DNA of 64,000 nt from Microglena sp. YARC (lineage: Eukaryota; Chlorophyta; Chlorophyceae; Chlamydomonadales; Chlamydomonadaceae): positions 10,256,027-10,320,026 of the forward strand of contig CM039466.1 of NCBI GenBank assembly GCA_022414725.1, in the 5' to 3' direction. Each line of letters begins with the position of its first letter. The stretch's first letter is position 1. Made by a program: the position numbers and the translations under genes. The notes under the pieces were generated by a model. The model was not told the DNA's origin. It made no database searches and saw only the letters and a list, made by a program, of their open reading frames with translations. Positions 3,001-64,000 of this stretch are shown in pieces.

Positions 3001-3341
3001 CGTGTTTCTCCACCGTGGGTTCCCTCTACTCACCGTGTTCCCCTCTACTTCACTCACTCCCTACCGTACCGTTCCCCTCTACTCACTCCACCCACCGTGT
3101 TCCCCTCTACTGTTCCCCTCTACTCACTCCACTGTGTTCCCTCTCCACCGTACTCACTCCACCACTCCACCGTGTTCCCCTCTACTCACTCCAGTCCGTG
3201 TTCCCTCTACTCACGCCACCGTCCCCTCTACCACTCCAACGTGTTCCCTCTACTCACTCCACCGTGTTCCCCTCTACTCACTCCAACTCACCGTGTTCCC
3301 CTCTACTCACTCCACCCACCGTGTTCCCCTCTACCTCACAG
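1..3341. repeat. 24-bp minisatellite (GTGTTCCCCTCTACTCACTC type)
   Basis: More than 130 imperfect copies of a unit of about 24 bp fill the first 3.3 kb. Copies differ mostly by small insertions and deletions, which could be real decay or long-read error. Because the unit is a multiple of three and poor in stops, all three plus frames give long open frames rich in F, P, S, T, H and L; these are not genes. The array ends in CCTCACAG, which serves as the acceptor of the first recognisable exon of gene 1, so it lies at the end of an intron. Confidence 0.95.
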
Positions 3342-3450
3342 CTTAAACCTCACAGTGGACCTGACAACGAATGCACCAGAAGTGTACTGGCCCAACTGGC
3401 TATATTTCAAGTCATTGGATGGAACCAATGGTTGGAACTCGATTCAGGAG
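3342..3450 (+). CDS. Gene 1 exon a
   Basis: Begins right after the CAG that ends the 24-bp minisatellite and stops at GAG before GTACCA. The leading C completes a codon from an upstream exon outside the window or hidden in the array. It encodes 36 residues including [14 protein letters not shown] and ends WNSIQE, the first half of a discoidin-like domain. It joins in phase to the next exon. Confidence 0.6.
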
Positions 3451-34419: not shown

Positions 34420-34570
34420 ATGGAGCAAACCGCAAGCGATGATGGCTTCGATTTGGAAGCAGAGTGGGAGAAGGAGCTCGACCAGATTGGGGACGATACT
34501 TCAGACGGGGGAGATGACCTGGGATTTGACGACCTGGGCCTAAAGTTCACACCTGGTGATGACTCAGAAG
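34420..34570 (+). CDS. Gene 2 exon 1
   Basis: ATG with an in-frame TAA three bases upstream of its GCC; donor GTATTG. It encodes MEQTASDDGFDLEAEWEKEL and DQIGDDTSDGGDDLGFDDLG and ends TPGDDSE plus one base. The codon for Asp is completed by exon 2. Confidence 0.78.
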
Positions 34571-37500
34571 GTATTGACCAGCTTCTCACATCCCATTCGA
34601 AGCCCATTAGGCATTCCTAAAACGTGCCAGTCCAGGCCTGGGAGTGAGGGAGCTTGGCCCTCCCTGTGTATGTGCAGCGGTGACTGCCTCTCATAAAAGC
34701 TCATGTACCCCCCTGTACTTGCTAGCTGTGCTGCTGCTACCGCCAGTGCCTCTTCGTAATTCAAATCTGCATGGGCTGGATGCCGTGGGGAATCTAGCTT
34801 CATGTTTGGTGTCCCCCTGTGGCACTCATAAGCTCCTTCACACTCCGGGGCTCCTGTGCAGTACCTGGGCTGCATGCTGTCCGTGGTGCTCCGTGGGGGT
34901 GAAAAGCTGGTCAGTTACGTAGCACTGTGGTGCTGCTTAGGGCTACTGAAGGCAGCCAAAAGATTCCTTTATGTAGCACCTCCAAAACACCCAAATCCCT
35001 TATGTAGCACTTGTAATTGTAGGAGCACCTAACAAAAGAACTGATGTTGTCGGCCAATAGGCTGCTATGTGGATACATGGTGTGCAGCATGTGCGGGTTG
35101 TTTGAACACTGAATGTTGCGACAATTCCCTCATGGTGTGAGGCACCGGGTTTTGAATCATGATGTGGCATTCAAAAACAAGTCCGCATAGTAAGTTAACA
35201 ACAGTCAAACTCAGATGCTAGGCCGAATGAATCATGTATATGATTTGTTGGGGATGAGTACAACAAATTTTTCTTTACATTTGTTGGGGATCAGTACATC
35301 AAGGAAACCCTTTGTGGTGTTACAAACATAGATTAATAAAGTGGTGTCCACGCAAGTGGTGTTACATATAAAAAACTAATAAAGTGGTGTCCATACAAGT
35401 GGTCTTACATACACATAGATTAATGAAGTGGTGTCCATGCAAGTGGTGTAACATAAATAAACTAATAAAGTGGTGTCCATGCTGGTGGTGTTACATACAT
35501 AAACTAGTAAAGTGGTGTCCATGCAAGTGGTGTTACATACATAAACTAGTAAAGTGGTGTAACATAAATATACTTATAAAGTGGTGTCCATGCAAGTGGT
35601 GTTACTAACATAGATTAATAAAGTGGTGTCCATGCAAGTGGTGTTACAAAAATAAACTAATAAAGTGGTGTCCATGCAGGTGGTGTTACATACATAGATT
35701 AATAAGTGGTGTCCATGCAAGTGGTGTTACATACATAAACTAGCAAAGTGGTGTTACATAAATATACTCATAAAGTGGTGTCCATGCAAGTGGTGTTACA
35801 AACATAGATTAATAAAGTGGTGTCCATGCAAGTGGTGTTACAAACATAGATTAATAAAGTGGTGTCCATGCAAGTGGTGTTACATAAATAAACTAATAAA
35901 GTGGTGTCCATGCAGGTGGTGTTAAATACGTAGATTAATAAGTGGTGTCCATGCAAGTGGTGTTACATGCATTAACTAGTAAAGTGGTGTTACATAAATA
36001 TACTAATAAAGTGGTGTCCATGCAAGTGGTGTTACATGCATAGATTAATAAAGTGGTGTCCATGCAAGTGGTGTAACATAAATAAGCTAATAATCGGTGT
36101 CCATGCAAGTGGTGTTACATACATATCAATTAATGACGTGGTGTCCATGCAGGTGGTGTTACATACATAAACTAGTAAAGTGGTGTTACATAAATAATCT
36201 TATAAAGTGGTGTCCATGCAAGTGGTGTTACATGCATAGATTAATAAAGTGGTGTCCATGCAAATGGTGTAACATAAATAAGCTAATAATTGGTGTCCAT
36301 GCAAGTGGTGTTACATACATATCAATTAATGACGTGGTGTCCATGCAGGTGGTGTTACATACATAAACTAGTAAAGTGGTGTTACATAAATAATCTTATA
36401 AAGTGGTGTCCATGAAAGTTGTGTTACATACATAAACTAATGAAGTGGTGTCCATGCAAGTGGTGTCACATAAATATACTAATAAAGTGGTGTCCATGCA
36501 AGTGGTGTTACATACATAGATTAATAAAGTGGTGTCCATGCAAGGGGGGTTACATAAATAGATTAATAAAGTGGTGTCCATGCAAGTGGTGTTACATACA
36601 TATCGATTAATAAAGTGGTGTCCATGCAAGTGGTGTTACATACATATCGATTAATAAAGTGGTGTCCATGCAAGTGGCGCTAAATAAATAAATACATAAG
36701 TAATGTGGTATTAAATATATAAACACATACATACATGTTTTGCCTTTTGAGGAGGCGTGAGGTTGAGGGGGCAAGCCCATTTGCATGCTCTTGAGCCAAC
36801 CACCAAGAGTGGTATTATTTTGTATGCACAATGTTTTCAAAGCGTTTGTGTTTGGTCTGTGCATGGTCTGCACTGCCGTGTAGGTGTGGTTAAGTCTTTA
36901 TTAATAAAATTGAATTTTATTTCTGCAGATGATGGTGATGACGACGAACAGGAGCCAGAGTCCCTTGAAGCATTTAGAGAGGCCATGCAAAATTGTATTG
37001 TATGAATTATATCAAATTATTGTATTCATCATATTCTAATATATTTTTCTTCCGCAGATGCTGATGGCGAAGATGACGAGGAGGAGCTGCATATAGGCAA
37101 TTCAACATTGTATTTGATAACTTAAATTACGATACTGTGTTCATAACATTTATTTTATTTCCGCAGATGATGATGGCGAAGACGAGGAGGAGGAGCCGGA
37201 GTCCCTCGCAGCATTCAGAGAGGCAATGCGAAAGCGGGATGCAAAGAACGACGAATTTGATCTGGACCTGACCACGACAAGAGCCACAGTGGCAGATCAG
37301 GCAGCACGAGAAGAAGAACAAAGTGATGGGCGGCAGCAGCAGCAGCAGCAGCAGGGGGAAGAAGACGGGTCGCAGCCTGCGGCTTTTGGTCAGGATGGGG
37401 TCGGTGAGTACCTAGGTCTAAACCCACACCCAACACCAGACCTCGGTGCATGGCAACCACCCCCCAACCTAACCCAAACCAAAAGTCCTCCACCCTCCAA

Positions 37501-40500
37501 CCCAACCCAACCCAACCCAACCCAACCCGACCCAACCCAACCCAACCCAACACCAATTGTCTTTGCTCCAGTTACCAATTGTCCCGTTACCAACCTCCAC
37601 CCCCCAACGCAACCCACCCCCAGTTGTCCCGTTTCCAATCGACCTCCACCCCTAACCCAACCCACCCCCAATTGTCCTCGCTCCAGTCCTGCTAAGGACA
37701 TTGACACACACAAATTTCAATTTTGCAGTTGACCCATCAGTTTCGATTTTAAATTCAAATCCAAATTTCCAGGTGACTCATTGGGCAGCACAGCAGGGAA
37801 GCCTGTTTTGGGAGGGGTGGATGACCAGTCCTGTTAATAACCCTGAAAGCCCCTGCTGACCTTGGCATTGACAATGACATTTGCCCCTGCTGAAACTGAC
37901 ACAAACTAATTTCAATTTTGCAGGTGTCCCATCAGTTTCAATTTCAAATTCAAATTCAAATTTCCAGGTGACCCATCGGGCAGCACAGCAGGGAAGCCTA
38001 TTTTGGGTGGTGTGGATGACCAGTCCTGTTAATGACCCTGAAAACCCTTGCTGGCCTTGGCCCCTGCTGACTTTGACACACGCTAATTTCAAATCCGCTG
38101 GTGACTCACGAATCAGCACAGCAGGGAAGCTGCCAACCTTGGGAGGGGTGGATGACGAGATCCGCATGATGCAGGCAACAAGTGCCCCCCCCCCTCCTAC
38201 CCCCAAACACCAAACACCAACCCACACCAACCTACACCCCCAAACACCTCCCCAAACACCAACCCACATCCTCAAACACCAACCCCAAACAACCAAACCG
38301 CTGTGGTACATGCCATAGCAGATCGTGCCCCCTGGTGGATGACGTGATCCCCAGGATGCAGGCTACAAGTGTCCCTTACCCCCCCCCCCCCCCCCCCCCC
38401 CCTCCCCCTCCCCTCCTACCCAAACAACAATCCACACCAATCTACACCCCCAAACATCAACCCAAACCCCAAACCGCTGTGGTACATGCCATCGAAGATT
38501 GTGGTCCTTTTTTCTTCTTCTTCTTTTCCTGCACCTTTTCCTGCACCCCCCCACTCCCCAACTCCCCAACCCACCCCCAAACACCAAATCACTGTGGTGC
38601 ATGCCATCGCAGATCGTGGCCCCATGGTGGATGTCGTGATCCGCAGGATGCAGGCAGCAAGTGTCTCCCCCCCCCCTCCTCCCCCAAACAACTACCCCCC
38701 CAATCTACACCCACCAACCCAACCCCAAACACCAAATCACGGTGGTGCATGCCATCGTAGATCGTGGCCCCATGGTGGATGTCGTGATCCGCAGGATGCA
38801 GGCAGCAAGTCCCCCCCCCCCCCCCCCCCCCTCCTCCCCAAACAACCCCCCCCCCCCCCCCCCCCACTCCCCCAACCCAACCCCAAACACCAAATCACTG
38901 TGGTGCATGCCATCGTAGATCGTGGCCCCATGGTGGATGTCGTGATCCGCAGGATGCAGGCAGCAAGTGTCTCCCCCCCCCCCCCTCCTCCCCCAAACAA
39001 CACCCCCCCCCAATCTACACCCCCAACCCAACCCCAAACACCAAATCACTGTGGTGCATGCCATCGCAGATCGTGGCCCTGTGGTGGATGACATGATCCG
39101 CATGATGCAGGGGAGATTGCAGCTAGGACCCTGAAAGCCACCACACTGACATACGCTAATTTCAAATCCGCAGGTGATGCATCAGGCAGCACAGTCGGGA
39201 AGCAGCCAACCTTAAGAGGGGTGGATGACGTGATCCGCATGATGTAGGCAACAAGTACTACCCCCCCCCCCCCCCCCCCCCCCCCCAACACCAACACCAA
39301 CACCAAGACCAACACCAACACCAACACCAACCTAATCCCCCAAACACCACCCCCAAACACCGAACCGTTGTGGTACACGCCATTGCAGATCGTGGCCCTG
39401 TGGTGGATGACGTGATCCGCTTGATGCAGGAAAGATTGCAGCAGCAGCAGCAGCAGGCTGGTACTGGTGCTGATGGCGATGCTGATGGGGAGGGGGATGG
39501 GGAGGGGGCAAGTGCTCCAACTGCTGCGGAGCCTGATGGGTATGCGCAGGCAGTACTGGATAGGGAGGAGCAGTACAAGCAGTACCGTGCGTTGGAAGAG
39601 CAGCGTGAGCATGAGAAGGAGCAGATGAAGCAGCAGCAGCAGAAGGAGGAGCAGAAGAGGGCGGAAGAGGCTGAGGTGTGTGAGGTGTAGGGTTGTGTTT
39701 GAGTTTGTGTTTGTGAGTGCTTGTGTGTGTGTTTGTGTGTGTTTATGTGTATTTTGGGTTGTCTATATCGTCCTACTTCCAATATAGTAGTTCCATCGTG
39801 CGTTGGAAGAGCAGCGTGAGAGAGAGGGAGCAGATGAAGCAGCAGCAGGAGGAGGAGGAGCAGAGGAGGGCGGGGGAGGCTGAGGTGTGTGATGTGTAGG
39901 ATTGTGTGTGTTTGTGAGTGCTTGTGGGTGTGCTTGTGCATGTGTGTCTGTGTGTGTGTGGTTGTCAATATCGTCCTAGTTCCAAGATTATCGTGCATTG
40001 GAAGAGCAGCGTGAGAGAGAGGGAGCAGATGAAGAAGCAGCAGGAGGAGGAGCAGAAAAGGGCGGAGGAGGCTGAGGTGTGTGATGTGTAGGGTTGTGTG
40101 TGTGTTTGTGAGTGCTTGTGGGTGTGCATGTGTGTGTCTGTGTGTGTGTTATGTGTGGTTGTGGTTATCTAGATCGTCCTAGTTCCAAGATTATTGTGCA
40201 TTGGAAAAGCAGCGTGAGAGAGAGGGAGCAGATGAAACAGCAGCAGGAGGAGGAGGAGCAGAAAAGGGCGGGGGAGGCTGAGGTGTGTGCGGTGTGGGGT
40301 TGTGTGTGTGCTTGTGCATATGTGTGTGTTTGTGTTTTTGCATGTGTGTGTTTGTGCATATGTGTGTTTATGTTTGTCAAAGCGTCATATTTCCAAGATT
40401 ATCGTGCGATATATCATACAATATCATACAATATATTATGTGTACCCTGGGCATCTAGGGATGTAATGGCTCTCAAGGAGGTTGTATAGCTCTTCGGCAC

Positions 40501-55272: not shown

Positions 55273-55308
<36 letters not shown>

Positions 55309-58300
55309 AACAACTGGTCAATCAACGGTCGACCTACCCTTAGAAAGCAACCGCCACCGGTATATTTTTGTTGCAATTGTCCCAGTGTCTTGGCTGGGTC
55401 TCAGCTAATATGATTTGATCAACTTCGGATCACATTGACGGACGGGCAGGCCCCTGGGTCTCTGGGATAGGTCTCTGGGATGGGTCTCTGCACTGGGATA
55501 GGCTGGGGCTGGGGTTGGGGCTGGGAGGGTCTCTGGACTGGTTCTCTCACATTTCATTTTTTGTATCAGAGTTGGCGGTCTGCTCTGGAATGAGCTGGGG
55601 CTAGGCGGGTCTCTGGACTGTTTCTCTTACATTGCTATTTTTTAGCGGAGGTGGCGATTGTGGTGCAGGGGGGGAGGGGGGGGGGGGGAGATCGAAATGG
55701 GAATTTGATAAAATCTGCTTTATTCTTCTATCCTGAACTGGCTGAATTCTACTACACAGGACCAGATGTGAACTGATCAGACCTCTCCTTTCCTGCCCTT
55801 ACCTGGGCTGCCTGGCCTAGTATTGACCTATTTCTAAAACTCATGCCTGATGTTATTCAGCACAACCTAATGGTTTCCTAATCCTTGCCTGGTAGACGCT
55901 GCTTTCCAATGTGAACTTTCCTAGCCTTTACCTACTCCTGCCTGATGTTATTAAGCGCAACCTAATGGTTTCCTGGTTTTGCTTGTAGACGCTCCTTTTC
56001 AATGTGAACTTGCCTAGCCTTGACCTATTACCCCCCGTGCGATGACCACAATAGACTAGCTTTGGCTTATTTCTATCTAATTGCCTTGTAGACGCTGCTT
56101 TCCAATGTGATCTGTTCCAGTACAATGTAATGGTTTCCTGTCCCTTGCCTGTCCTATTCCTTGTAGACGCTGGTTGACAATGTGAACTGGCTTGGTGGCC
56201 TCCAAGGCCTGGCGGGTTATTATACCTATCCTTTCCTTAGCCTTGACCTATTCCTGTCTGATCTGTTTCAGTACAACCTTATGCTTTCCTGTCCTACTCC
56301 TTGTAGACACTGGTTGCCAATGTGAGCTCGCTTGGTGGCCTCCAAGGCCTGGCGGGTTATTATACCTATCCTTTCCTGGCCTATCCTGGCTTAGCCTTGA
56401 TCTATTCCTGTCTGATCTGTTTCAGCACAACCTTATGCTTTCCTGTCCTATTCCTTGTAGACGCTGGTTGCCAATGTGAACTCGCTTGGTGGCCTCCAAG
56501 GCCTGGCGGGCTGGTCCAGGCTAGTCCTGGCTAAAACAGGCTAGTCCAGGAACTTTTCCTGTCTGATATTTTTCAGTATAATCTAATGGTCTCCTGTTCC
56601 TTTCCTGTCCTATTTTCTTGTAACGCTGGTTGCCAACGTGAACTCGCTTGGTGGCCTCCAAGGCCTTGCGGGTCTAGGCGCCCTCCAGGAGCTCAGTTTG
56701 AAAGAGAACCGACTTGTCAGCCTGGAGCTGCCTGGCGGCCAGGCTGTCATCCAGGGCCTACCTCAGCTCAGGCATCTCATGGTGGATGCCAACATGCTTG
56801 ACAGCCTGGCAGGGCTTGCCACTGGCTGGTGTCCAGTGCTGCACACCTTCAGTGCCTCAGACAACCGGATCAACTCCCTCCTGCTGCCAGCTGGCGAGGG
56901 CGCAGCCCCCCCTCAGGACCCCCTCTCACACTCCGCCCTTGCTGCCTGCGCTGCCAGCCTGTCCGTACTGCAACTCAGTGGCAACTGCCTCACCTCCCTT
57001 CAGGGTTTACAAGCCTGTACTGCCCTGACTTCGCTAGATGTCAGTCGGAACAGATTGCAGACCCTAGCTGGCCTCGAGCGCTGCCACATGCTCCAGTACC
57101 TGGATGTCACGGCAAATGAGTTAGGTGGTGCTGGGGGGGGTGCAGGCGGTATGAGAGCCTCTGTAGGCGCTGTGCCGGTGCTGCTGCTGCCCCTCAGAGG
57201 TGACGGAGCTCACAAAGGCCTCCTCACACTCCGGACACTGAAGATGGGTGAAAACCGTGTGATGTCGTTTTCTGAGCTACCCTGCATGCCGTCCCTGGAG
57301 ACGCTGGTGCTTACGGTCAGCTGTTGCTTTGCTCCTGCTGGTTGGGGCAGTAGCAGGGGGCAGTGGCGGGGTGGGGTTGCGAGTGGTAGCGGTGATAGGT
57401 GGGGGATGGGGGCGACTCTGAGGACACTCAAGATGGGCGAACAACGTGTGATGTCATTTTCTGAGGTACCTTACATGCCGTCCCTGAAGACGCTGGTGCT
57501 TACGGTGCGTTACCTCCAGGGTACTTCAAATGGCCAAATTGGCCAGTGCTTTAGCGCACTTGGAAACAAAAAAAACTGCGCTTTGTAGTGCAAAAACGCA
57601 AAAAAATTGCTTGCAGCGCCCACAAGGGTTGCAAAAACTGCGCTTAAAGCGCAGAGGGGACAAAAAGTCAGCGCTCAAAAGCTCAAAAAGCGCGCGCTTT
57701 GAATTACCCTGGTTTACCTTCCTCCTGCTTGGTTGGGCACAGTAGCAGCAGCAGTAGTGTGTGTGTGTGTGTGGGGGGGGGGGGGGGCGGGGGGGGGGCG
57801 CGTTGTTAGCGGTAATGGGTGGGGGATGGGGGCGACTCTGAGAGACACTCAAGATGGGCAAACAACGTGAGATGTCATATTCTGAGCTACCCTACATGCC
57901 GTCCCTGGAGGCGCTGGTGCTTACGGTGTGTTACCTCCTACTGCTGGTTGGGGTAGGAGCAGCGGCAGTGTGTGTATATGTGTGTGTGTGTGTGTGGTGG
58001 GGGGGGGGGGGGGCAACATGATGGGCATTCCACTGTTTTGGCGGAGCCTCCCCATCTGGGGGGCGAGAGCCTCTAGATTCACCCCGTTGCAGGGTACTAC
58101 TTATTGCCAAATTGACGAGCGCTTAAAGCGCACAAACGTCAAATTGGTCAGCGCTTTTTAGCCTTTTGCCTGACCGACCGACAACCAACCGAACAACCGA
58201 ACAACCGGGACGAAGCCTGACACGTCAGCCAACTGTCACATAACTAACTGGCTTTGGTCAGCTCCATTGTTGCCACCTGTTGTTCCGTTGCCAACAATCT

Positions 58301-61300
58301 CCGCCAATTTTCCGTGTTGCTTGCGACGCAGAATAGGATTTGTTTATTTTGGGGCATGCTGTTCGTACGTACCCCTTGCCTCGGCCAAGCTGCGGGCACA
58401 TTTGAACTCCAGTAGGGCACCAGGAAAAATGTAATCATCATCACCATCATCATCATCATCATCATCATAACTGCGGGTGACATCTTTGGTCTTCGCCTGA
58501 TGACTAGCTAATGGAGCTGGCAGGAAGCTGCCATGCGTAGTCCAACAGTGGAACAGTTCCTCTTCCTGCTTTTGCTGTGCAGGATAAGCGCATTACACAG
58601 GGTCACCCCCTCCACCACCATCACCACCACCACCACCACCACCATCACCACCATCTGATGACCTCTTCCTGCGTTTGATGTGCAGGATAAGCGCATTACA
58701 CAGGGTCACCCCCTCCACCACCACCATCACCACCACCACCATTACCACTACCATCTGATAAGCTCTTTCCACCTTTGCTGTGCAGGATAACCGCATTAGT
58801 GAGTTGGCTGAGATACCTGCAATGCCACAGCTGAAGGACTTGGACCTGTCGTTCAATAACCTGCAGCACCTCCGACAAGTAAGCTGCAGATTTTTAGTTC
58901 AGTTCATCAGTTTTTTCGTTTTAGCCCCTCCTGATAGCATGGTTGGGCGAATCCCTTTAGCCTGTTTGGCCTACCCATATAAGTGGTGGTGGTGGTAGCT
59001 GCTGGTGGTAACTGGTGGTGGTAGCTGCTGCTGGTAATTGGTGGTTGTAGCTGCTGCTGGTGGTAGCTGCTAGTGGTGGTAGCTGCTGGTGGTAGCTGCT
59101 GCTGGTAGCTGCTGCTGGTAATTGGTGGTTGTAGCTGCTGCTGGTGGTAGCTGCTAGTGGTGGTAGCTGCTGGTGGTAACTGGTGATTGTAGCTGCTGCT
59201 GATGGTAGCTGCTGGTTTTAGCTGGTGGTGGTAGCTGGTGTTGGCAGCTGCTGGTGGTAGCTGGTGGCAGCTGGTAGTAGCTGTTGGGGGTTGTAGCTGC
59301 TGCTGGTGGTAGCTGGTGGCAGCACCTTCAACATGTAAGCTGCTGATGGTGGTAGCTGGTGGCAGCTGGTAGTAGCTGTTGGGGGTTGTATCTGCTGTTG
59401 GTGGTAGCTGGTGGCAGCACCTTCAACATGTAAGCTGCTGATGGTATTCTAGCCCCACCCCGTGTAGATGCAACCCCTAAACCCTATTCCTGCAATCTTG
59501 AGTCACAAAGCAGCAAGCAGACTCGGGGTCCCGGATTCCTCATCATTGTATCTTGAGTCACAAAGCAGCAAGCAGACAAATAGACAAAGCTGGATCTGTT
59601 GCTGATCAGACTCGGGGTCCCGGATTCCTCATCATTTAATCTTGAGTCACAAAGCAGCAAGCAGACTCGGGGTCCCGGATTCCTCATCATTGTATCTTGA
59701 GTCACAAAGCAGCAAGCAGACTCGGGGTCCCGGATTCCTCATCATTGTATCTTGAGTCACAAAGCAGCAAGCAGACTCGGGGTCCCGGATTCCTCATCAT
59801 TGTATCTTGAGTCACAAAGCAGCAAGCAGACTCGGGGTCCCGGATTCCTCATCATTGTATCTTGAGTCACAAAGCAGCAAGCAGACAAATAGACAAAGAT
59901 ATATAGTCATATAGATGAATATACGAAGATACAAAACGACAAGCAAGTTATCTAAATACCAATTCTCGTTAGATACTGATGCGCATTAGATACTGATTCT
60001 CGAAAGTCCAGTTACCCGCAATCCCTCCTGTACTAAGGGAGGTGTCTCGAGCTGGGGTCGAGGCTGGGGCAATGGTTGGGGTTGAGGTGTCTCAATGTGG
60101 GGTCGAGGTAGGTCGAGGGGTTTCCCCAGGCCCTAGATTTGCAGTAGATTCGCCACGGGTGGCCATCATAAGTTCATAACTGCAAAACGTTATAGATTGA
60201 CATCCCCCTCCCACCTGTCATACTTAGAAGGTCCAGATTCTGACTCTGAACATTTTGTAACATAGCATAGCATAGCATAGCTTATCACAACACAACACAA
60301 TATCTGTGTGTCAGGACCTAGAAAAGGGTATGTGAGAGTAAGAAAGCAACATAGCAAACCACAGCTTAACATAGCATAGCTTATCACAACACAACACAAC
60401 ATCCGTGTGTCAGGAGGAACTGGAGAAAGGTACGTGAGCGTACGAAAGTAACAGAGCATAACACAACACAACATAGCATAGCATAGCTTACCACAACACA
60501 ACACAACATCCGTGTGTCAGGAGGAACTGGAGAAAGGTACGTGAGCGTACGAAAGGAACAGAGCATAACACAACACAACATAGCATAGCATAGCTTATCA
60601 CAACACAACACAACATCCGTGTGTCAGGACCTGGAAAAGGGCATGTGAGTGTACAAAAGCAACATAACAAACCACAGCATAACATAGCATAGCTTATCAC
60701 AACGCAACACCCCAATGGCCTTCAGTCCCCCATGGTCTACGTGTAGCTACGTTCTTGGAGAGTTTGGGTCAGGGGCCCGTTCATCTTCCTCTTGACGTCC
60801 AAGACACAGGCAAACTCCTCATGAACATGATCATGTAGAACATCTTCCAGGGGCGAATTCCCGTGCACTTCCTTGTGCTCATCTTTCAGCAGCTGCATGA
60901 GCCTGTGCAGGATTAAAGAGCTCCAGATTTTGACTCTAAACCCAACAAGCTTAAATTACCCTAGCTTTTGTGGCTTGGTCCTAATCGTGTATCAGTCGGG
61001 GTATAGAATAAACTGTACCGTTTCATATGTACTGCCTCATATGCATATGTACTGTCTCATATGTACAAGTGTCTCAAGTCTAAATATTCCCTGGCTGTGA
61101 GGAATAGGAAGAAGAGAGACACAACTGTTTTAATGCTTCAATGCTCATTGTCAAAAAAAAATGAAAAAGAAAAAGAAAAAAGAAAAAATGAAAAGGAGAG
61201 AGACACAAATGTTTTAATGCTTCAATGCACATTGTCAAAAAAATGAAAAAGAAAAAAAAAGGAAGAAGAGAGACACAACTGTTTTAATGCTTCAATGCAC

Positions 61301-64000
61301 ATTGTCAAAACAAATGAAAATAAAAAAATAAAAAATAAAAAGAAGAGAGACACAACTGTTTTAATGCTTCAATGCACATTCTCAAAAAAAAAAAAAAAAA
61401 AAAAAAAAGAGACACAAATGTTTTAATGCTTCAATGCACATTGTCAAAAAAAAGTGAAAAAGAAAAAGGAAAAAGAAAAAAATAAAAAATAAAAAAAGAA
61501 GAGAGACACAACTGTTTTAATGCTTCAATGCACGTTGTCCCCTGGACTGCTTGTGGGTGTGTGTCCTGTCAACCCTAGCTGGCAGCTTGCGCAGCCTGCA
61601 TCTGAACGACAGCCTCATGACACCAGACCCAATGAGCTTAAATTACCCACACCCCCTGGACTGCTTGTGGGTGTGCGTCCTGTCAACCCTAGCTGGCAGC
61701 TTGCGCAGCCTGCATCTGAACGACAGCCCCATGACACCAGACCCAATGAGCTTAAATTGCCCACACCCCCTGGACTGCTTGTGGGTGTGCGTCCTGTCAA
61801 CCCTAGCTGGCAGCTTGCGCAGCCTGCAGCTGAATGACAACCCCCTGACACTGGACCCAATGAGCTTAAATTACCCACATCCCCTGGTCTGCTTGTAGGT
61901 GTGTGTCCTGTCAACCCTAGCTGGCAGCTTGCGCAGCCTGCATCTGAACGACCGCCCCATGACACCAGACCCAATGAGCTTAAATTACCCACATCCCCTG
62001 GTCTGCTTGTAGGTGTGCGTCCTGTCAACCCTAGCTGGCAGCTTGCGCAGCCTGCAGCTGAATGACAACCCCCTTGAGGCTGATGCTCAGTACCAGAGTG
62101 TGGTTAGATCGGCACTCCCCTACTTGCAGGTGTGTGATGAGTTGATGCGCTTCTGCATTGTTTAGGGTTTGTTTTGAAATCGAACTTGGTTACGGGGCTC
62201 CAGCCAGCAATTTGGCTGCTCGCCTTCTTCGGCGACTTTGGGTTTGTTAGTGGTTTGATTAACACAAAGTTAAACTCTAGATCACTTAACCTTCCATGGA
62301 GCACAGAACCAGAGTGTGGTTAGTTCGGCGCTGCCCTACTTGCATGGGTGTTGTGAGATGTTGTGCACCTGCACAGTGTGGGGTTTTCGTGTTAATGGTG
62401 TGTTTTGAGTTGTTGTGCATCTGCACAGTATTAGATGTACGTGTTAATTGTGTGCTGTGAGTTGTTGCGCATCTGCTCAGTGTTGTTTTTTCGTGTTAAT
62501 GGTGTGCTGTGAGTTGTTGTGCATCTGCAAAGTTTGAATTGTGTGTTGTGAGTTGTTGTGCATCTGCAAAGTGTTAATTGTGTGTTGTGAGTTGTTGTGC
62601 ATCTGCAAAGTGTTAATTGTGTGTTGTGAGTTGTTGTGCATCTGCAAAGTGTTAATTGTGTGTTGTGAGTTGTTGTGCATCTGCAAAGTGTTAATTGTGT
62701 GTTGTGAGTTGTTGCGCATCTGAAAAGTGTTAATTGTGTGTTGTGAGTTGTTGCGCATCTGAATAGTGTTAATTGTGTGTTGTGAGTTGTTGTGCATCTG
62801 CAAAGTGTTAATTGTGTGTTGTAAGTTGTTGTGCATCTGCTCAGTTTTGATTATTCATGTAAATGGTGTGCTGTGAGTTTTTGTGCATCTGCTCAGAATT
62901 GGATTTTCGTGTTAATGGTGTGTTGTGAGTTGTTGTGCATCTGCTCAGTTTTACTTATTCATGTAAATGGTGTGCTGTGAGTTTTTGTGCATCTGCTCAG
63001 AATTGGATTTTCGTGTTAATGGTGAGTTGTGAGTTGTTGTGCATTTGCTCAGTGTTAGTTTTTCGTGTCAATGGTGTGTTGTGAGTTGTTGTGCATCTGC
63101 CCAGTGGTGGTCTTTGTGTTAATGGTGTGGTGTGAGTTGTTGTGCATCTGTCTATTGTTGTTTTTATGTGTTAATGGTGTGGTGTGAGTTGTTGTGCATC
63201 TGCACAGTGTTAAATGTACGTGTTAATGGTGTGTTGTGAATCGTTGTGAATCTGCTCAGTGGTGTTTTTTCGTGTTCATGGTGTGTTGTGAGTTGTTGCG
63301 AATCTGCTCAGTGGTGGGTTTTCGTGTTAGTGGTGTGTTTACTAAAACATGTACTCTAGAACGCTAAAACTAACACAGACACTGACACCAACACGATCAC
63401 ACATACAAACACGGACACTGACACCGACACGATCACAAAAACTAACACGAACACTGACACCGACACGATCACAAAAACTAACACAGACACTTACACCTAT
63501 ACCGGCACCAACACCGATACCAATACCAACACTGAAACTGACACCATCACAAACTGCCCCGGCCAACCTTCCTCACAAACTGCTCACACAGACATTAGAC
63601 CAAAGAGATCTTTCCGTCCAGGAGCAAGGCTATGTATTGCCCCAAGCATGCTCCACCACTAATACAAATACAAACACTGACACGGGCACTGACACTTTCA
63701 CATACTGCCCCTACCAACCTTCCTCACCTTCTGTTCATACAGACATTGGACCATAGAGAGCTTTCCGTCCAGGAGCAAGGCTATGCATTGACCCGAGCAT
63801 GCTCCACCTCCCCCCTCCTCGCCTTGTCCACCATGCGCATGCTGCGCTCGGCTGAATCAGCAGTGCTGACAGCGCCAGCTGCCGCCAGCATATGTGCCTG
63901 GTCAGCTGCCAAGGATGCAGCTGCAAGAGCTGCTGCCCCTCCTCCATCTGCTGCCCCTACAGCAATGGGGGCGGCTGCCACGGCTGCAGCTGCAGCTGCC
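34420..64000 (+). CDS. LRRIQ1: Gene 2: LRRIQ1-like leucine-rich repeat / IQ protein (13 exons, 3' partial)
   Basis: Assembled here from 34420-34570, 37167-37403, 39389-39675, 41102-41281, 43053-43229, 44814-44955, 50236-50591, 52082-52551, 53966-55187, 56623-57315, 58786-58878, 62013-62129 and 63743-64000; all phases agree and give 1461 codons without a stop. Residues 1-50 are acidic with LEAEWEKELDQI, close to the conserved N-terminus of animal LRRIQ1. About 130-285 form a Q/E/R-rich coiled coil. IQ-like helices lie near 325-340 (KRISRAWLAYRE) and 345-362 (AAVRAYFARKKYKV). About 392-1070 are Ala-rich helical sequence without a known domain. Leucine-rich repeats span about 1070-1375 (LQELSLKENRL, LSVLQLSGNCL, LTSLDVSRNRL, LKDLDLSFNNL, LRSLQLNDNPL) with a cap PYLQTLDHREL. 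Animal LRRIQ1 has the same order and a length of about 1700 residues and is linked to cilia. Other ciliary LRR/IQ proteins remain possible. Confidence 0.7.
34571..35330. other. First part of intron 1, no element recognised
   Basis: GTAGCACTT / TATGTAGCACCTCCAAAACA occurs two or three times near 34915-35010. A minus-strand frame with LNYEEALAVAAAQLAST looks coding-like over 20 codons but has no flanking support. Confidence 0.4.
35330..36720. repeat. About 39-bp tandem array (AAGTGGTGTCCATGCAAGTGG)
   Basis: Some 35 units of GTGGTGTTACATACATAAAC and TAATAAAGTGGTGTCCATGC, with higher-order blocks repeated (36097-36240 and 36290-36420). Cys/Trp/Lys open frames here are artefacts. Confidence 0.95.
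36929..37125 (+). pseudogene. Two decayed copies of the gene 2 exon 2 start
   Basis: TTTCTGCAG at 36928 precedes DGDDDEQEPESLEAFREAMQ, then TGA. TTCCGCAG at 37057 precedes DADGEDDEEELHIG. Both repeat the opening of exon 2 (DDDGEDEEEEPESLAAFREA) with the same upstream ATTTATTTT-like tract, but neither has an in-phase donor. Confidence 0.75.
37167..37403 (+). CDS. Gene 2 exon 2
   Basis: Acceptor ATTTCCGCAG, donor GTGAGT. It encodes DDDGEDEEEEPESLAAFREA, a charged helix, and then QQQQQQQ followed by GEEDGSQPAAFGQDGV. The CAG run is a polymorphism candidate. Confidence 0.82.
37430..37700. repeat. C-rich tract with CCCAA repeat
   Basis: (CCCAA)n at 37498-37550 and CACCCCCAATTGTCC units give Pro/Thr frames. 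Confidence 0.88.
37725..38160. repeat. Three copies of an exon-like unit (GTGACTCATTGGGCAGCACAG)
   Basis: CAG/GTGACCCATCGGGCAGCACA...GGGGTGGATGAC recurs at about 37771, 37966, 38098 and, more weakly, 39173. The 38.1-kb copy reads on to GAGATCCGCATGATGCAG but has CCGCTG instead of CCGCAG; the 39.2-kb copy has CCGCAG but ends in TAG. None fits as an exon. Confidence 0.75.
38165..39388. repeat. About 150-bp array carrying the exon 3 acceptor, with long C runs
   Basis: GCCATCGCAGATCGTGGCCC with GTGGTGGATG...GTGATCCGCAGGATGCAG recurs with copy starts at about 38322, 38494, 38613, 38761, 38919 and 39070, before the true exon at 39389. Each copy has an acceptor (two read TCGTAG) and DRGPMVDVVIRRMQ, but CAG is followed by GCAGCAAG, not a donor. 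Between copies lie C homopolymers and CCCCAAACACC. Confidence 0.9.
39389..39675 (+). CDS. Gene 2 exon 3
   Basis: Acceptor GCCATTGCAG, donor GTGTGT. It encodes DRGPVVDDVIRLMQERLQQQ, AGTGADGDADGEGDGEG, then LDREEQYKQYRALEEQREHE and KEQMKQQQQKEEQKRAEEAE. The second half is a strongly predicted coiled coil. Confidence 0.82.
39685..40300. repeat. Three about 200-bp decayed copies of the exon 3 end
   Basis: GTGCGTTGGAAGAGCAGCGTGAG is followed by AGAGAGG in place of the exon's CATGAGAAG, a 2-base loss that shifts frame in every copy (39790, 39997, 40195). The copies keep GAGGCTGAG/GTGTGT. TG-rich spacers separate them. Confidence 0.88.
40300..40480. other. TG-rich spacer
   Basis: (TG)n followed by a short AT-rich stretch with ATATCATACAATATCATACA. 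No gene seen. Confidence 0.6.
40498..41030. repeat. ACACACAAACGCAACAT repeat
   Basis: About 25 units of 20-30 bp. Thr/His plus frames and Cys/Val minus frames (up to 260 codons) are artefacts. Confidence 0.95.
41102..41281 (+). CDS. Gene 2 exon 4
   Basis: Acceptor AACACACAG, donor GTGCGT. It encodes AKAKAEEEALLRQHALAAAA, EQDREREEVEAAALSARMKE and ends METRL-like MEERRALM. Phase 0 at both ends. A 73-bp partial copy with the same acceptor lies just upstream (41029). Confidence 0.8.
41335..41830. repeat. 131-133-bp array over the exon 4 donor
   Basis: GGCGGAGGCTGCTGCTCTTT to CACTGATGGTGCGTAATGTG recurs four times; donors fall at 41414, 41546, 41677 and 41807. Each repeats the last 70 bases of exon 4 with its donor but has no acceptor. 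Confidence 0.93.
41985..42115. repeat. GGTTGGGT-rich tract
   Basis: GGTTG/GGTAGGGTT pentamer-like repeat. Confidence 0.85.
42116..42268. mobile_element. AT-rich palindromic MITE, copy 4
   Basis: AGGGACTGGCATATCATATG left end, ATATCATATTGCTGTTCCC right end, GCCTAGTCAGACTGCCAGCA inside. Confidence 0.83.
42500..42570. mobile_element. Short interspersed fragment (GGTTCCTTCAATCTCA)
   Basis: GGTTCCTTCAATCTCATACC with CCTTGGCAGGGCGTAACAAT. Related strings occur at 15015-15060 and, reversed, at 16965-17010 and 36745-36800. Confidence 0.5.
42620..42914. mobile_element. hAT-like MITE with internal 32-bp repeat
   Basis: Begins CAGGGTACTACATTTTGTC and ends GCTTTGTAGCACCCTG. Inside, TCAGCGCTTAAAGCGCACAA recurs four or five times with a 32-bp period. 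No clear target duplication. Related to 7271-7464 and 57517-57711. Confidence 0.75.
42916..43004 (-). pseudogene. Inverted copy of gene 1 exon j inside gene 2
   Basis: On the minus strand it reads EKTTLIVKNSRKASAYMLDF followed by TAVSAG, against [20 protein letters not shown] and TAVSAG in exon j (about 16849-16926). By eye about 70 of 78 bases match. It lies between a MITE and a CGTAACAAT repeat fragment and has no splice sites in place. Confidence 0.88.
43053..43229 (+). CDS. Gene 2 exon 5 (first IQ-like helix)
   Basis: Acceptor TTGTGCGCAG, donor GTATGT. It encodes AADQLKREAAMEAMQQELNQ, then CVKRISRAWLAYREGPTRSL and ends ILYMQ. R-I-S-R-A-W-L-A-Y-R is a degenerate IQ motif (the Gln is replaced). 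Phase 0 at both ends. Confidence 0.82.
43205..43585. repeat. Repeat of the exon 5 donor with TTTAGGG blocks
   Basis: CATGCAGGTATGTTAGGGTT recurs at 43225, 43329, 43376, 43421 and in weaker forms to 43570, with TTTGTTGCGTGTGTAA. The first two copies include ATGCAGGGCATCCTGTACATG from the exon. Confidence 0.88.
43620..43925. pseudogene. Two partial copies of exon 5 interior
   Basis: GTGGAGGCCATGCGACAAGA with GCTGCAGGTGGCTACCCAAG at 43645 and 43803 match GATGGAGGCCATGCAACAAG in exon 5. Both lack an intact frame and splice sites. Between them are GGGTGGG tracts. Confidence 0.8.
43935..44813. repeat. 130-bp array carrying the exon 6 acceptor
   Basis: CACCAG/GCTGCCGTGAGTGCCTA recurs with exon-like starts at 44024, 44159, 44289, 44419, 44549 and 44679, before the true exon at 44814. 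Each holds AAVSAYLVRKKDKVAEAEHD and then CTGCCCTGCCCTGC spacer. Minus-strand frames of 70 codons are artefacts. Confidence 0.96.
44814..44955 (+). CDS. Gene 2 exon 6 (second IQ-like helix)
   Basis: Acceptor TGACACCAG, donor GTAGGT. It encodes AAVRAYFARKKYKVAKAEHD followed by VMRSLEEAASSGMLEAVKAA. A-V-R-A-Y-F-A-R-K-K-Y has the spacing of an IQ helix. It ends in phase 1. Confidence 0.82.
45296..45475. mobile_element. TIR element (GGGCTACG family), copy 3, uninterrupted
   Basis: GGGCTACGTGTAGCAGCTTC to GAAGCTGCCATGCGTAGCTG, with CATGACAGGTATTCTAATGA and TGACCCAGTGGCTGG inside. It shows the pre-insertion order of the copy at 26657-27022. Confidence 0.78.
45595..46730. repeat. 60-bp satellite-like array
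   Basis: About 18 nearly identical 60-bp units of CAGCCACAGCCAGAGCCACA, CACTGCCAAAACCAGAGCC and GCTTGAGCCGTAGATT. The unit is a multiple of three, giving a minus-strand open frame of 315 codons (AVAVALAVAESTAQ). I consider it non-coding intron sequence. Confidence 0.95.
46755..46955 (-). mobile_element. tRNA-derived SINE, subfamily A (reverse)
   Basis: GATAACGCCTGGGGCAAGGC, AAGGGAGACCCGTCTTACGA, ATGGCGGTTGACAGCGACCG and GGGATTCGAACCCAGCACC. GGTCCACGCACCCGTTGTCATA lies on both sides of the block (about 46728 and 47058), so it sits inside a duplication. Confidence 0.85.
47100..49765. repeat. 2.7-kb CAGCCA/CAGCCAGAGCCGTAG array
   Basis: A hexamer-based array (CAGCCA, GAGCCA, GAACCA, GAGCCGTAGC) with higher-order blocks that carry CAGCCTGAGCCAGAGACAC. 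Minus-strand frames of 322 and 526 codons (Ala/Val/Leu) and a Gly/Cys frame all arise from it. It fills most of the intron before exon 7. Confidence 0.96.
49765..50235. repeat. Three about 155-bp copies of the exon 7 start
   Basis: TCTGTGGACGGTGATNCCAAGG...AAGNCAGCTG recurs at 49768, 49910 and 50070, before the true exon at 50236. Copies have changed or lost acceptors (GTCAGGCTTG, GTCTGGTCTG) and stops such as GACTAAC. Confidence 0.9.
50236..50591 (+). CDS. Gene 2 exon 7
   Basis: Acceptor TATGCTCAG, donor GTGAGG. It encodes LSVDGDAKVAALETQSKAAA, TALQAAQRYRHLAGVVAQCE and ends GVRKRDASIGAALL. Ala/Leu-rich helix with no named domain. Phase 0 out. Confidence 0.8.
50690..51720. repeat. Duplicated exon 7 end, split by an inserted element
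   Basis: 50690-50755 repeats CTAAGGTCTGAGC...GGCGTGCGCAA of exon 7, and 51660-51720 repeats GCGAAAGCGAGGATGCTTAT followed by GTGAGGCTAGGGTGTAGGGT, including the donor. The two halves together equal the last 100 bases of exon 7 plus its intron, separated by the element at 50761-51650. Confidence 0.85.
50761..51650. mobile_element. TIR element (GGGCTACG family), copy 4, with internal 54-bp array
   Basis: TTTCCGCTACGAGCAGCAGC at the left and GCTTCTGCTCGTAGCGGAAA at the right are inverted copies that extend through AGCTTCTAGGCAGCTCC. Inside are about 14 copies of GGCTGGCTCAAGGAGCTGCC and GAAAGATTAGGGTCTAGCTC (54 bp). Its open frames in both directions (267 and 278 codons) are repeat artefacts. 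Confidence 0.83.
51720..52081. repeat. C-rich tract and upstream copy of the exon 8 start
   Basis: TTGTAGGTAGCTGCCAGTGC to AAGAGGGCTGGAGATCCC at 51882-51955 copies the first 65 bases of exon 8 with its acceptor. The rest is CCACGTCCACACC and CCACCACCACACC. Confidence 0.88.
52082..52551 (+). CDS. Gene 2 exon 8
   Basis: Acceptor CCATTTGTAG, donor GTGTGT. It encodes EAASANPYDPIAFQLLSKRA, RSIVDKRRRVFANQLPTQAQ and SEARLLGLDREAQNLTAQLS, an Ala/Leu helical region. It ends in phase 2. Confidence 0.8.
52552..52850. repeat. (GTAT)n-like tract
   Basis: ATGTATGTATG repeats separated by unique sequence. Confidence 0.85.
53000..53335. repeat. About 70-bp G-rich repeat (GGGAGACTAGACTCCCAGGG)
   Basis: Four copies of CCATGGGAGACTAGACTCCC with GGGGGTCCTGGGGTACCCAC. 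The palindromic CTGGGAG/CTCCCAG ends are kept. Confidence 0.9.
53455..53960. repeat. Polypyrimidine C-rich tract before exon 9
   Basis: CCCCAACCCCAACCC and C homopolymers run for 500 bp up to CCCATGCAG, forming an extreme polypyrimidine tract. Confidence 0.92.
53966..55187 (+). CDS. Gene 2 exon 9 (long exon)
   Basis: Acceptor CCCATGCAG, donor GTAAAG. 1222 bases code without a stop: CHSEVDLAQRSMEARRQASG, a Pro/Ser-rich linker (SYASSSPPGRLAPSPPAAPR), KEVNQAIQDLQAVAGSVPGA, SALAAAQLHLKVQLAEGSFY and ending LWCPKLE. The final CPKLE starts the first leucine-rich repeat. The linker may be disordered; no enzyme motif is seen. Confidence 0.82.
55262..55312. repeat. (CAA)n microsatellite
   Basis: AACAACAACAACAACAAC, about 15 triplets. 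Confidence 0.96.
55430..55700. repeat. GGGTCTCTGGGATGGGTCTC repeat
   Basis: Six or seven imperfect copies of GGGTCTCTGG(GA/AC)TGG. Intronic. Confidence 0.75.
55790..56622. repeat. About 150-bp array carrying the exon 10 acceptor
   Basis: CTTGTAGACGCTGGTTGCCA, GTGAACTCGCTTGGTGGCCT and CCAAGGCCTGGCGG occur at 56161, 56300 and 56453, before the exon at 56623; weaker CTTGTAGACGCT ends are at 55890, 55982 and 56090. Each copy has TAG/ACGCTGG; the final one reads TTGTAACGCTGG. Confidence 0.9.
56623..57315 (+). CDS. Gene 2 exon 10 (leucine-rich repeats)
   Basis: 231 codons in phase: TLVANVNSLGGLQGLAGLGA, LQELSLKENRLVSLELPGGQ, LRHLMVDANMLDSLAGLA, LSVLQLSGNCLTSLQGLQAC, LTSLDVSRNRLQTLAGLERC and LRTLKMGENRVMSFSELP. 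The spacing (L-x-x-L-x-[LV]-x-x-N-x-[LI]) fits the SDS22-like LRR class. Donor GTCAGC. The base before ACG is not AG in this copy (see finding). Confidence 0.8.
57412..57930. repeat. Two copies of the exon 10 end and donor
   Basis: CTCAAGATGGGCGAACAACG to ACGCTGGTGCTTACGGTGCG at 57425-57510 and 57848-57931 copy the last 90 bases of exon 10 with its donor. The first ends 5 bp before a MITE. Confidence 0.9.
57517..57711. mobile_element. hAT-like MITE, 195 bp
   Basis: CAGGGTACTTCAAATGG to TTTGAATTACCCTG, the sister of 7271-7464 with the same TIR and interior. The flanks GTTACCTC and GTTTACCT look like a target duplication with one indel. Confidence 0.85.
58040..58345 (+). mobile_element. Interspersed repeat (family X), split by a truncated MITE
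   Basis: GGCGGAGCCTCCCCATCTGG, then from 58092 CAGGGTACTACTTATTGCCA with AGCGCTTAAAGCGCACAAAC, then GGCTTTGGTCAGCTCCATTG, GTTGTTCCGTTGCCAACAAT and GTGTTGCTTGCGACGCAG. The MITE piece (about 58092-58165) interrupts the order seen at 15294-15530. Confidence 0.7.
58435..58785. repeat. (CAT)n, CCACCA tracts and two copies of the exon 11 acceptor
   Basis: TGTGCAGGATAAGCGCATTA at 58577 and 58680 copies TGTGCAGGATAACCGCATTA at the start of exon 11. Both then read CACAGGGTCACCCCCTCCAC and CACCACCATC runs. The end of the GGGCTACG family (GGAAGCTGCCATGCGTAGTC) is at 58525. Confidence 0.88.
58786..58878 (+). CDS. Gene 2 exon 11 (leucine-rich repeats)
   Basis: Acceptor TGCTGTGCAG, donor GTAAGC. It encodes DNRISELAEIPAMPQLKDLD and LSFNNLQHLRQ, one and a half LRRs. 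Phase 0 at both ends. Confidence 0.85.
58980..59450. repeat. GGTGGTAGCTGCTGCTGGTA minisatellite
   Basis: About 30 units of GGTAGCTG(CTG/GTG)GTG. CAGCACCTTCAACATGTAAGCTGCTG, seen twice (59322, 59417), resembles the exon 11 end and donor (CAGCACCTCCGACAAGTAAGC), so the array probably grew from that junction. Confidence 0.88.
59496..59890. repeat. 55-bp tandem repeat
   Basis: TCTTGAGTCACAAAGCAGCA and GACTCGGGGTCCCGGATTCC recur seven times, mostly 55 bp apart, with one 90-bp unit. Confidence 0.95.
60240..60715. repeat. About 107-bp repeat (CATAGCTTATCACAACACAA)
   Basis: Four units containing CATCCGTGTGTCAGGA and CTGGAGAAAGGTACGTGAG with short CAACACAACA runs. Confidence 0.92.
60737..60902 (-). 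pseudogene. Coding-like antisense exon, 54 codons
   Basis: On the minus strand, TTTAATCCTGCACAG is followed by LMQLLKDEHKEVHGNSPLED and VLHDHVHEEFACVLDVKRKM and a TAG stop at 60737-60739. Length and frame suit a terminal exon with phase-1 entry. Codon use and composition look unlike the repeats around it. I do not recognise the family and see no upstream exon, so it may be a gene fragment. Confidence 0.35.
61085..61535. repeat. About 75-bp A-rich repeat (GAGACACAACTGTTTTAATG)
   Basis: Six copies of GAGAGACACAACTGTTTTAATGCTTCAATGC-type units (short part CTTCAATGCACATTGTC) separated by variable A-rich runs. Confidence 0.93.
61540..62012. repeat. 114-bp array carrying the exon 12 acceptor
   Basis: CTAGCTGGCAGCTTGCGCAG starts at 61575, 61689, 61803, 61917 and 62031, exactly 114 bp apart. 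Each reads VCVLSTLAGSLRSLHLND. Copies 1-3 have CTTGTGGGTGTG where copies 4-5 have CTTGTAGGTGTG. Confidence 0.97.
62013..62129 (+). CDS. Gene 2 exon 12 (last LRR)
   Basis: Acceptor TGCTTGTAG, donor GTGTGT. It encodes VCVLSTLAGSLRSLQLNDNP and LEADAQYQSVVRSALPYLQ. The chain SALPYLQ then TLDHREL in exon 13 is a typical LRR cap. Confidence 0.85.
62330..63345. repeat. 39-60-bp array (TGTGAGTTGTTGTGCATCTG)
   Basis: Perfect 39-bp units of GTTAATTGTGTGTTGTGAGT from 62535 to 62830, and longer units with TTTTCGTGTTAATGGTGTG elsewhere. A CGGCGCTGCCCTACTTGCAT copy of the exon 12 end lies at 62328. Confidence 0.94.
63355..63560. repeat. ACTGACACCGACACGATCAC repeat
   Basis: Five units of 30-42 bp; further ACACTGACAC strings are at 63670-63700. 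Confidence 0.9.
63565..63660 (+). pseudogene. Upstream copy of the exon 13 start
   Basis: CACACAGACATTAGACCAAAGAG...CAGGAGCAAGGCTATGTATTG...GCATGCTCCACC copies 63738-63812 with several changes and then diverges into ACTAATACAAATAC. The acceptor is kept. Confidence 0.85.
63743..64000 (+). CDS. Gene 2 exon 13 (runs off the window)
   Basis: Acceptor TTCATACAG. It encodes TLDHRELSVQEQGYALTRAC, MRMLRSAESAVLTAPAAASI and an Ala-rich stretch, open to the window end. It closes the LRR domain and begins the C-terminal region, where animal LRRIQ1 carries further IQ motifs. Confidence 0.8.

What the first reader, a model, noticed from the sequence alone, without database searches (positions are those of the whole stretch)
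36929..63742. Most gene 2 introns are tandem arrays of the neighbouring exon's own splice junction
Exons 2, 3, 4, 5, 6, 7, 8, 10, 11, 12 and 13 each have one to six adjacent tandem copies of one edge: acceptor plus exon start (2, 3, 4, 6, 7, 8, 10, 11, 12, 13) or exon end plus donor (3, 4, 5, 7, 10, possibly 11 and 12). Gene 1 shows the same at exons e, j, k, l, n and r. Unit length (53-200 bp) differs each time, so the arrays arose independently. Arrays seeded at splice sites, not at random, point to a recurrent process such as replication slippage or repair at AG/GT-rich junctions, or to selection that tolerates duplications only when a complete exon and outer splice site remain. Each array creates decoy splice sites.
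Basis: partly seen in the sequence, partly recalled or inferred. Interest (0 to 1): 0.88.

Follow-up and report, generated by a model that had tools for sequence, protein, structure and literature searches.

The report
Splice junctions with tandem decoy copies
In a genome that likely belongs to a green alga, 50 of 121 exon-intron junctions examined have extra tandem copies of themselves in the neighbouring intron, slightly fewer than random spots in the same introns, so these copies are likely the overspill of genome-wide tandem duplication that splicing is predicted to ignore.

Summary
Gene 2 reads as 13 exons in one open frame. Searching reversed introns, or introns of the other gene, gives none.

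The main interpretation fails. Arrays are not seeded at splice sites. Over five sets (the window's two genes, their flanks, two further genes of one family) 50 of 121 junctions (41%) have a junction-spanning copy, against 507 of 976 random points in the same introns (52%). Ten stretches spaced along two contigs are 39% tandem array. The junction lies inside the repeat unit in the 19 arrays measured, and none of these units holds a whole exon.

Best reading: tandem duplication saturates this genome. Copies reaching across an exon edge survive because splicing likely still uses the exon-proximal site; 51 of 57 window copies keep AG or GT, and using any of the 51 would bring an early stop. Such structures are known from lancelets as "mirages". 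New here are the lineage and the density. Whether decoys are ever spliced was not testable.

The parts
34420..64000 (+). Gene 2 (leucine-rich-repeat protein; 13 exons in the window, continues beyond it)
   Evidence: exons join to an open frame of 1461 codons; LRR families in Pfam; homologue in Chlamydomonas sp. UWO 241
36904..37087 (+). two copies of intron end + acceptor + start of exon 2
38297..39104 (+). six copies of acceptor + start of exon 3
   Evidence: TRF 38546-39111
39850..40305 (+). three copies of end of exon 3 + donor
40994..41053 (+). one copy of acceptor + start of exon 4 (period 83)
41381..41831 (+). four copies of end of exon 4 + donor (period 132)
43306..43544 (+). four copies of end of exon 5 + donor (shorter exon parts in three; one reads TT instead of GT)
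43999..44711 (+). six copies of acceptor + start of exon 6 (period 130)
49882..50105 (+). two copies of acceptor + start of exon 7; the hidden-source protein P0001 reads both as coding
51669..51727 (+). one copy of end of exon 7 + donor, 1.1 kb downstream
51863..51922 (+). one copy of acceptor + start of exon 8
56143..56495 (+). three copies of acceptor + start of exon 10
57891..57946 (+). copy of end of exon 10 + donor (a further one near 57415-57503 read by eye)
58560..58698 (+). two copies of acceptor + first bases of exon 11
61538..61933 (+). four copies of acceptor region + start of exon 12 (period 114; three read GG instead of AG)
62311..62366 (+). one copy of end of exon 12 (GG instead of GT at the donor)
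63567..63626 (+). one copy of acceptor + start of exon 13
9342..9707 (+). gene 1: three copies of end of exon d + donor (period 153)
17357..17399 (+). gene 1: copy of end of exon i + donor
19609..19875 (+). gene 1: 77-bp array with copies of acceptor + start of exon j
   Evidence: 29 of 40 bases
23396..23682 (+). gene 1: five copies of end of exon l + donor (period 59)
26373..26408 (+). gene 1: one copy of end of exon n + donor
28214..28519 (+). gene 1: four copies of acceptor + start of exon o (period 82)

Best explanation
The arrays are likely tandem duplications that happened to cross an exon edge in a genome whose introns are full of tandem duplications, and they likely persist because splicing still uses the intact exon's own site and removes the partial copies as intron. 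Shown: the copies, their equal or lower frequency at junctions than elsewhere in the same introns, their scarcity inside the window's exons, and that 51 of 57 keep AG or GT. Inferred: (1) the duplications arise by slippage or unequal exchange without regard to splice sites; (2) duplications inside an exon, or of a whole exon, are removed by selection; (3) the spliceosome picks the exon-proximal site by recognising the exon as a unit, because local splice signals often do not favour the real site over the decoys. The net effect would be intron growth.
For: Five sets together: 50 of 121 junctions have a spanning copy, 507 of 976 random points in the same introns do; 63.1 expected, P(sim<=obs) 0.003. 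Per set: window gene 1 6/28 vs 41%, gene 2 16/24 vs 61%, flanks 6/18 vs 50%, two carbamoyl-phosphate-synthase-family genes 9/26 vs 42% and 13/25 vs 66%. So the junction rate broadly follows the array density of the introns. Gene 2: rotation of junctions along the introns gives P(>=obs) 0.50-0.73 in 12 settings. TRF coverage rises away from exons in gene 2. Window exon interiors 29/737 points with copies. 10 spaced stretches of C5 and C6: 1,410 of 3,639 points with a copy, TRF 15,499 of 40,000 bases; shuffled 2 of 3,166. Exon half and intron half of the copies diverge alike (0.91 vs 0.90-0.91 identity), as expected if neither is constrained. 37 of 57 decoys score no more than 1 bit below the functional site, taking the best AG or GT in each copy. 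All 51 intact decoys would bring a stop if used: 50 in the enlarged exon itself, one in the next exon. Lancelet genes with the same anatomy are reported to splice normally (PMC3087553, PMC3902484; passages).
Against: No RNA data: which sites are used is inferred from open frames and homologues. A hot spot at junctions could be hidden by selection against junction duplications; the slight deficit shows only that no excess survives. In gene 2 alone junctions (67%) are not below random points (61%). In the C5 gene exon interiors have copies at 39 of 134 points, and array density does not rise away from exons (55% at 20-50 bp, 55% beyond 800 bp); in the C6 gene exon interiors are clean, 13 of 293. 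The analysis holds four genes on two contigs, two of them of one family. PMC3087553 describes cluster-boundary copies excluded from homogenisation; here decoy-decoy and decoy-functional identity are equal (0.889 and 0.892; decoy-decoy higher in 5 of 11 arrays), so the turnover mechanism is not resolved. Random points were filtered for low complexity and junction probes were not.
Confidence: 0.8

Rival explanations
1. Duplication is seeded at splice junctions, for example by slippage or repair at AG/GT-rich sequence.
For: 11 of 12 gene-2 introns hold a junction array; 67% of gene-2 junctions against 61% of random points, an excess that rotation does not find unusual.
Against: No excess in the other four sets and a deficit overall; coverage rises away from exons in gene 2; the junction lies well inside the unit, not at its edge, in the 19 arrays measured.
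Confidence: 0.06
2. The decoy arrays are kept because they do something, such as tuning splicing or delaying expression.
For: 51 of 57 decoys keep AG or GT, 89% against about 83% expected from 91% identity per base.
Against: Copies diverge evenly in exon and intron halves, and arrays are as dense or denser away from junctions.
Confidence: 0.04
3. The arrays are traces of intron birth by tandem duplication of exonic AG/GT (the Rogers model).
For: Units hold AG or GT junctions; PMC2891723 and PMC3087553 discuss this route (passages).
Against: The units already contain intron sequence beside the exon part (11 bp or more in the 19 measured), so an intron was there before; the model needs a duplicated purely exonic piece.
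Confidence: 0.05
4. Assembly artefact.
For: A small frame difference near 55,140 and a missing AG at exon 10 suggest residual base errors.
Against: Copies differ from each other (66-99% mean decoy-decoy identity per array), distances differ between junctions, and the same pattern occurs on another contig.
Confidence: 0.04

Closest known systems
[quoted passage not shown] PMC3087553 and PMC3902484, passages seen
   Same: Units span the boundary; acceptor and donor sides both occur; unit length differs between loci; many but not all copies keep AG or GT; copies 81-100% alike in BflGb6, about 91% to the functional copy here.
   Different: A likely green alga instead of a lancelet; 50 of 121 junctions in the genes examined; arrays are as dense or denser in the rest of the intron; the functional copy is not systematically the odd one out.
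[quoted passage not shown] PMC2891723 passages)
   Same: Tandem duplication involving AG/GT.
   Different: Here the units already contain intron; existing introns would grow, and no new intron is shown.
Tandem 90-bp exon arrays of Tetrahymena LRR genes (PMC6564038, passages)
   Same: Tandem units holding splice sites, in LRR genes.
   Different: There whole exons are repeated and used; here none of the 19 units measured holds a whole exon.
Introners (recalled, no call on them)
   Same: Repeated sequence tied to splice sites.
   Different: Introners share sequence between introns; here junction probes did not match the intron of the other gene they were tried on (0 of 52).

Membership tests
Mirage (lancelet) | Tandem repeat unit spans an exon-intron boundary | tested here: met
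   57 copies at 22 of 52 window junctions, 0 of 52 in two controls
Mirage (lancelet) | Both 5' and 3' boundaries of exons can be duplicated | tested here: met
   32 acceptor and 25 donor copies
Mirage (lancelet) | Unit length differs between loci | tested here: met
   nearest-copy distance 59-319 bp at 17 of 19 junctions
Mirage (lancelet) | Many, not all, copies keep the splice signal | tested here: met
   51 of 57: 28 of 32 acceptor and 23 of 25 donor copies
Mirage (lancelet) | Inner copies homogenised, boundary copies excluded | tested here: inconclusive
   decoy-decoy identity higher than decoy-functional in 5 of 11 arrays
Mirage (lancelet) | Regular splicing not disturbed (RT-PCR) | not testable with these tools
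   no transcript data held
Mirage (lancelet) | Copy number differs between haplotypes or cells | not testable with these tools
   one assembly only
Intron gain by tandem duplication | Duplicated segment is exonic and becomes the intron | tested here: not met
   units include intron sequence in the 19 arrays measured
Introner | Introns in different genes share sequence | tested here: not met
   0 of 52 junction probes match the length-matched intron of the other gene; two genes only

The most novel reading that the evidence does not exclude
This genome is a natural saturation experiment on splice-site choice: about four in ten junctions compete with tandem decoys, up to a dozen or more and often near-identical, all ruinous if used, so the spliceosome of an alga must find exons by exon definition alone; and tandem duplication across and between junctions is the engine that makes introns of this lineage long.
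Probability: 0.35. Interest if true: 0.75.

Novelty: new member of a known kind. Interest (0 to 1): 0.5.

Why it matters
The papers found here describe junction duplications in a few lancelet genes; in this genome they sit at 21-67% of the junctions of each set examined. That makes it possible to ask how a spliceosome tells a real site from near-identical neighbours, and offers a candidate mechanism for long introns: PMC8226300 says of Chlamydomonas relatives that whatever mechanism drives their intron length is likely ancient (passages); whether this genome belongs to that group is not known. It also warns annotators: the hidden-source protein P0001 reads two decoy copies of exon 7 as coding sequence.

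Tried and rejected
Rfam and tRNA search gave nothing. A codon-usage gene finder found few gene-1 exons, but gave exon 1 of gene 2; gene-1 exons came from homologues instead. One short exon between m and n of gene 1 is missing from my model, and the exon near 3356 was not used in the window sets. A peptide of a dispersed element was searched to name the organism; it matched 14 proteins from JGI or ENA without an organism name. A DNA piece of the element was not found in viral contigs. Comparison of decoys with the functional copy to see the direction of growth was uninformative. Breakpoint context was printed and showed no clear rule; microhomology was not resolved. Four further families (TIGR00422, TIGR00344, TIGR03346, TIGR00392) could not be searched because the tool was busy.

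Full report
What is there. Gene 2 was rebuilt from the sequence. Thirteen exons, with AG acceptors and GT donors except for one acceptor (exon 10), join into one frame of 1461 codons without a stop. It encodes a leucine-rich-repeat protein with a homologue in Chlamydomonas sp. UWO 241 (34% identity over 47% of the query). Gene 1 has homologues in Haematococcus, Edaphochlamys and Sanguina (36-45%); with them 15 exons of the window were placed and used. The window lies on contig C5 of a genome of 568,105,699 bases in 2,390 contigs.

Junction copies. A 60-base probe (35 exon, 25 intron) at each of 52 window junctions was aligned with its flanking intron. 22 junctions have at least one copy that spans the junction, 57 copies in all: 16 of 24 junctions in gene 2 and 6 of 28 in gene 1. 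With the intron reversed, or with a length-matched intron of the other gene, none of 52 does.

Are junctions special? Four tests say no. First, near-copies of 40-base words within 2.5 kb: exon interior 29 of 737 points, exon within 20 bp of an edge 78 of 216, intron within 20 bp 72 of 204, intron 400-800 bp away 1,530 of 3,126, beyond 800 bp 983 of 1,886. There is no peak at the junction. Second, rotating the junctions along the introns of gene 2 gives as many hits by chance in the 12 settings tried (P(>=obs) 0.50-0.73); in gene 1 the junctions tend to have fewer (P(<=obs) 0.03-0.14). Third, Tandem Repeats Finder arrays of period 25 or more cover 29% of gene-2 intron within 50 bp of a junction and 77% beyond 800 bp; in gene 1 the figures are 17% and 19%, with up to 31% between. 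Fourth, on new data, I took flanking exons of both genes and the two genes matched by a carbamoyl-phosphate synthase family, chosen before their arrays were seen. Over all five sets 50 of 121 junctions have a spanning copy and 507 of 976 random points of the same introns do; 63.1 junctions would be expected at the intron rate and P(simulated <= observed) is 0.003. One search counted 6 of 19 flank junctions; one search used 18 of these (one acceptor has no full intron). Reversed introns gave 0 of 19, 0 of 26 and 0 of 25.

Results that fit less well. In gene 2 alone the junction rate (67%) is not below the random rate (61%). In the C5 gene exon interiors have near-copies at 39 of 134 points, and intron density is flat (55% at 20-50 bp, 55% beyond 800 bp); in the C6 gene exon interiors have 13 of 293. 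The short exons of these genes may let edge copies reach deep into them, which I did not test.

The genome as a whole. Ten stretches of 4 kb spaced along C5 and C6 have near-copies at 1,410 of 3,639 points and 15,499 of 40,000 bases in arrays; the stretches vary from 0 to 98%. Shuffled, 2 of 3,166 points have copies. Tandem duplication is thus widespread on these contigs, not a property of these introns alone.

Anatomy. In the 19 of 22 junction arrays with a good nearest copy, the exon part is 25-90 bp (median 60) and the junction lies inside the unit; none of the 19 holds a whole exon. The exon and intron halves of the copies are equally diverged. 51 of 57 copies keep AG or GT: 23 of 25 donors, and 28 of 32 acceptors after realigning (24 of 32; three of the difference are exon-10 copies whose real counterpart lacks the G). 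37 of 57 score no more than 1 bit below the real site, and at 16 of 22 junctions a decoy scores at least as well, exon 10 included (best AG or GT inside each copy). Using a decoy would shift the frame in 34 of 51 cases and bring a stop in all 51, 50 of them within the enlarged exon.

Mechanism. Shown: arrays fill introns, reach across exon edges at about the intron rate or a little less, and are scarce in the window's exon interiors. Inferred: duplications form without regard to splice sites; selection removes those that alter the exon; partial copies of an exon edge are harmless because the splicing machinery picks the site next to the complete exon. Exon definition is the natural candidate, since local signals often do not favour the real site and gene-2 introns (1.4-5.3 kb) are mostly much longer than its exons. 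In lancelets RT-PCR suggests normal splicing despite the same anatomy (PMC3087553, passages; PMC3902484, passage).

Known or new. The anatomy is that of lancelet 'mirages'. Paper listings for tandem repeats at splice junctions or intron-exon boundaries with algae, intron gain, minisatellites, mirages or Dunaliella (two searches listed 20 of 23 and 15 of 31) showed no report from a green alga that I could recognise from titles and abstract starts; most subscription journals are not held. The scale here, 41% of the junctions examined, is the new part.

Limits. Four genes, no RNA, one assembly, gene models by homology and reading frame; junctions of the two extra genes were placed by a score trained on the window.

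Noticed in passing
56613-56630: The acceptor of exon 10 reads TTGTA|ACG without AG, while its three nearest upstream copies read TTGTAG|ACG; protein P0001 joins here as if the site were normal. A base error in the assembly is likely.
   Followed up: partly
55128-55165: P0001 differs from the window's translation over about seven residues by a compensated frame difference, next to a leucine-rich repeat; again possibly a sequence error.
   Followed up: partly
49884-50243: P0001 (source hidden) starts inside a decoy copy of exon 7 and reads two copies as coding, joined by cryptic sites; exons 1-6 are missing from that model.
   Followed up: yes
7260-7465, 42636-42910, 57520-57710, 58090-58160: A dispersed element with AAATTGG(T/C)CAGCGCTT and CGCTTAAAGCGC motifs (partly read by eye); its peptide matches 14 proteins from JGI or ENA, up to 86% identical.
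   Followed up: partly
20197-20237, 22674-22719, 43230-43573: Interstitial CCCTAAA/TTTAGGG-type tracts inside introns (TRF for the first two, read by eye for the third).
   Followed up: no
12070-12220, 23030-23180, 27120-27260, 42120-42280: A family rich in ATCATATGAT palindromes at four places, read by eye.
   Followed up: no
45607-49761: Intron 6 of gene 2 holds about 4 kb of CAGCCA-type and 60-bp arrays, with long open frames on both strands that look like artefacts of the repeat.
   Followed up: no
1-3340: A 3.3-kb array of TGTTCCCCTCTACTCACTCCACCG inside an intron of gene 1, which continues upstream of the window (exon matches to about 19 kb upstream).
   Followed up: partly
L006:6474-6606: Copies of the end of P0001's coding sequence also follow its last exon, so arrays reach into the likely 3' untranslated region.
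   Followed up: no
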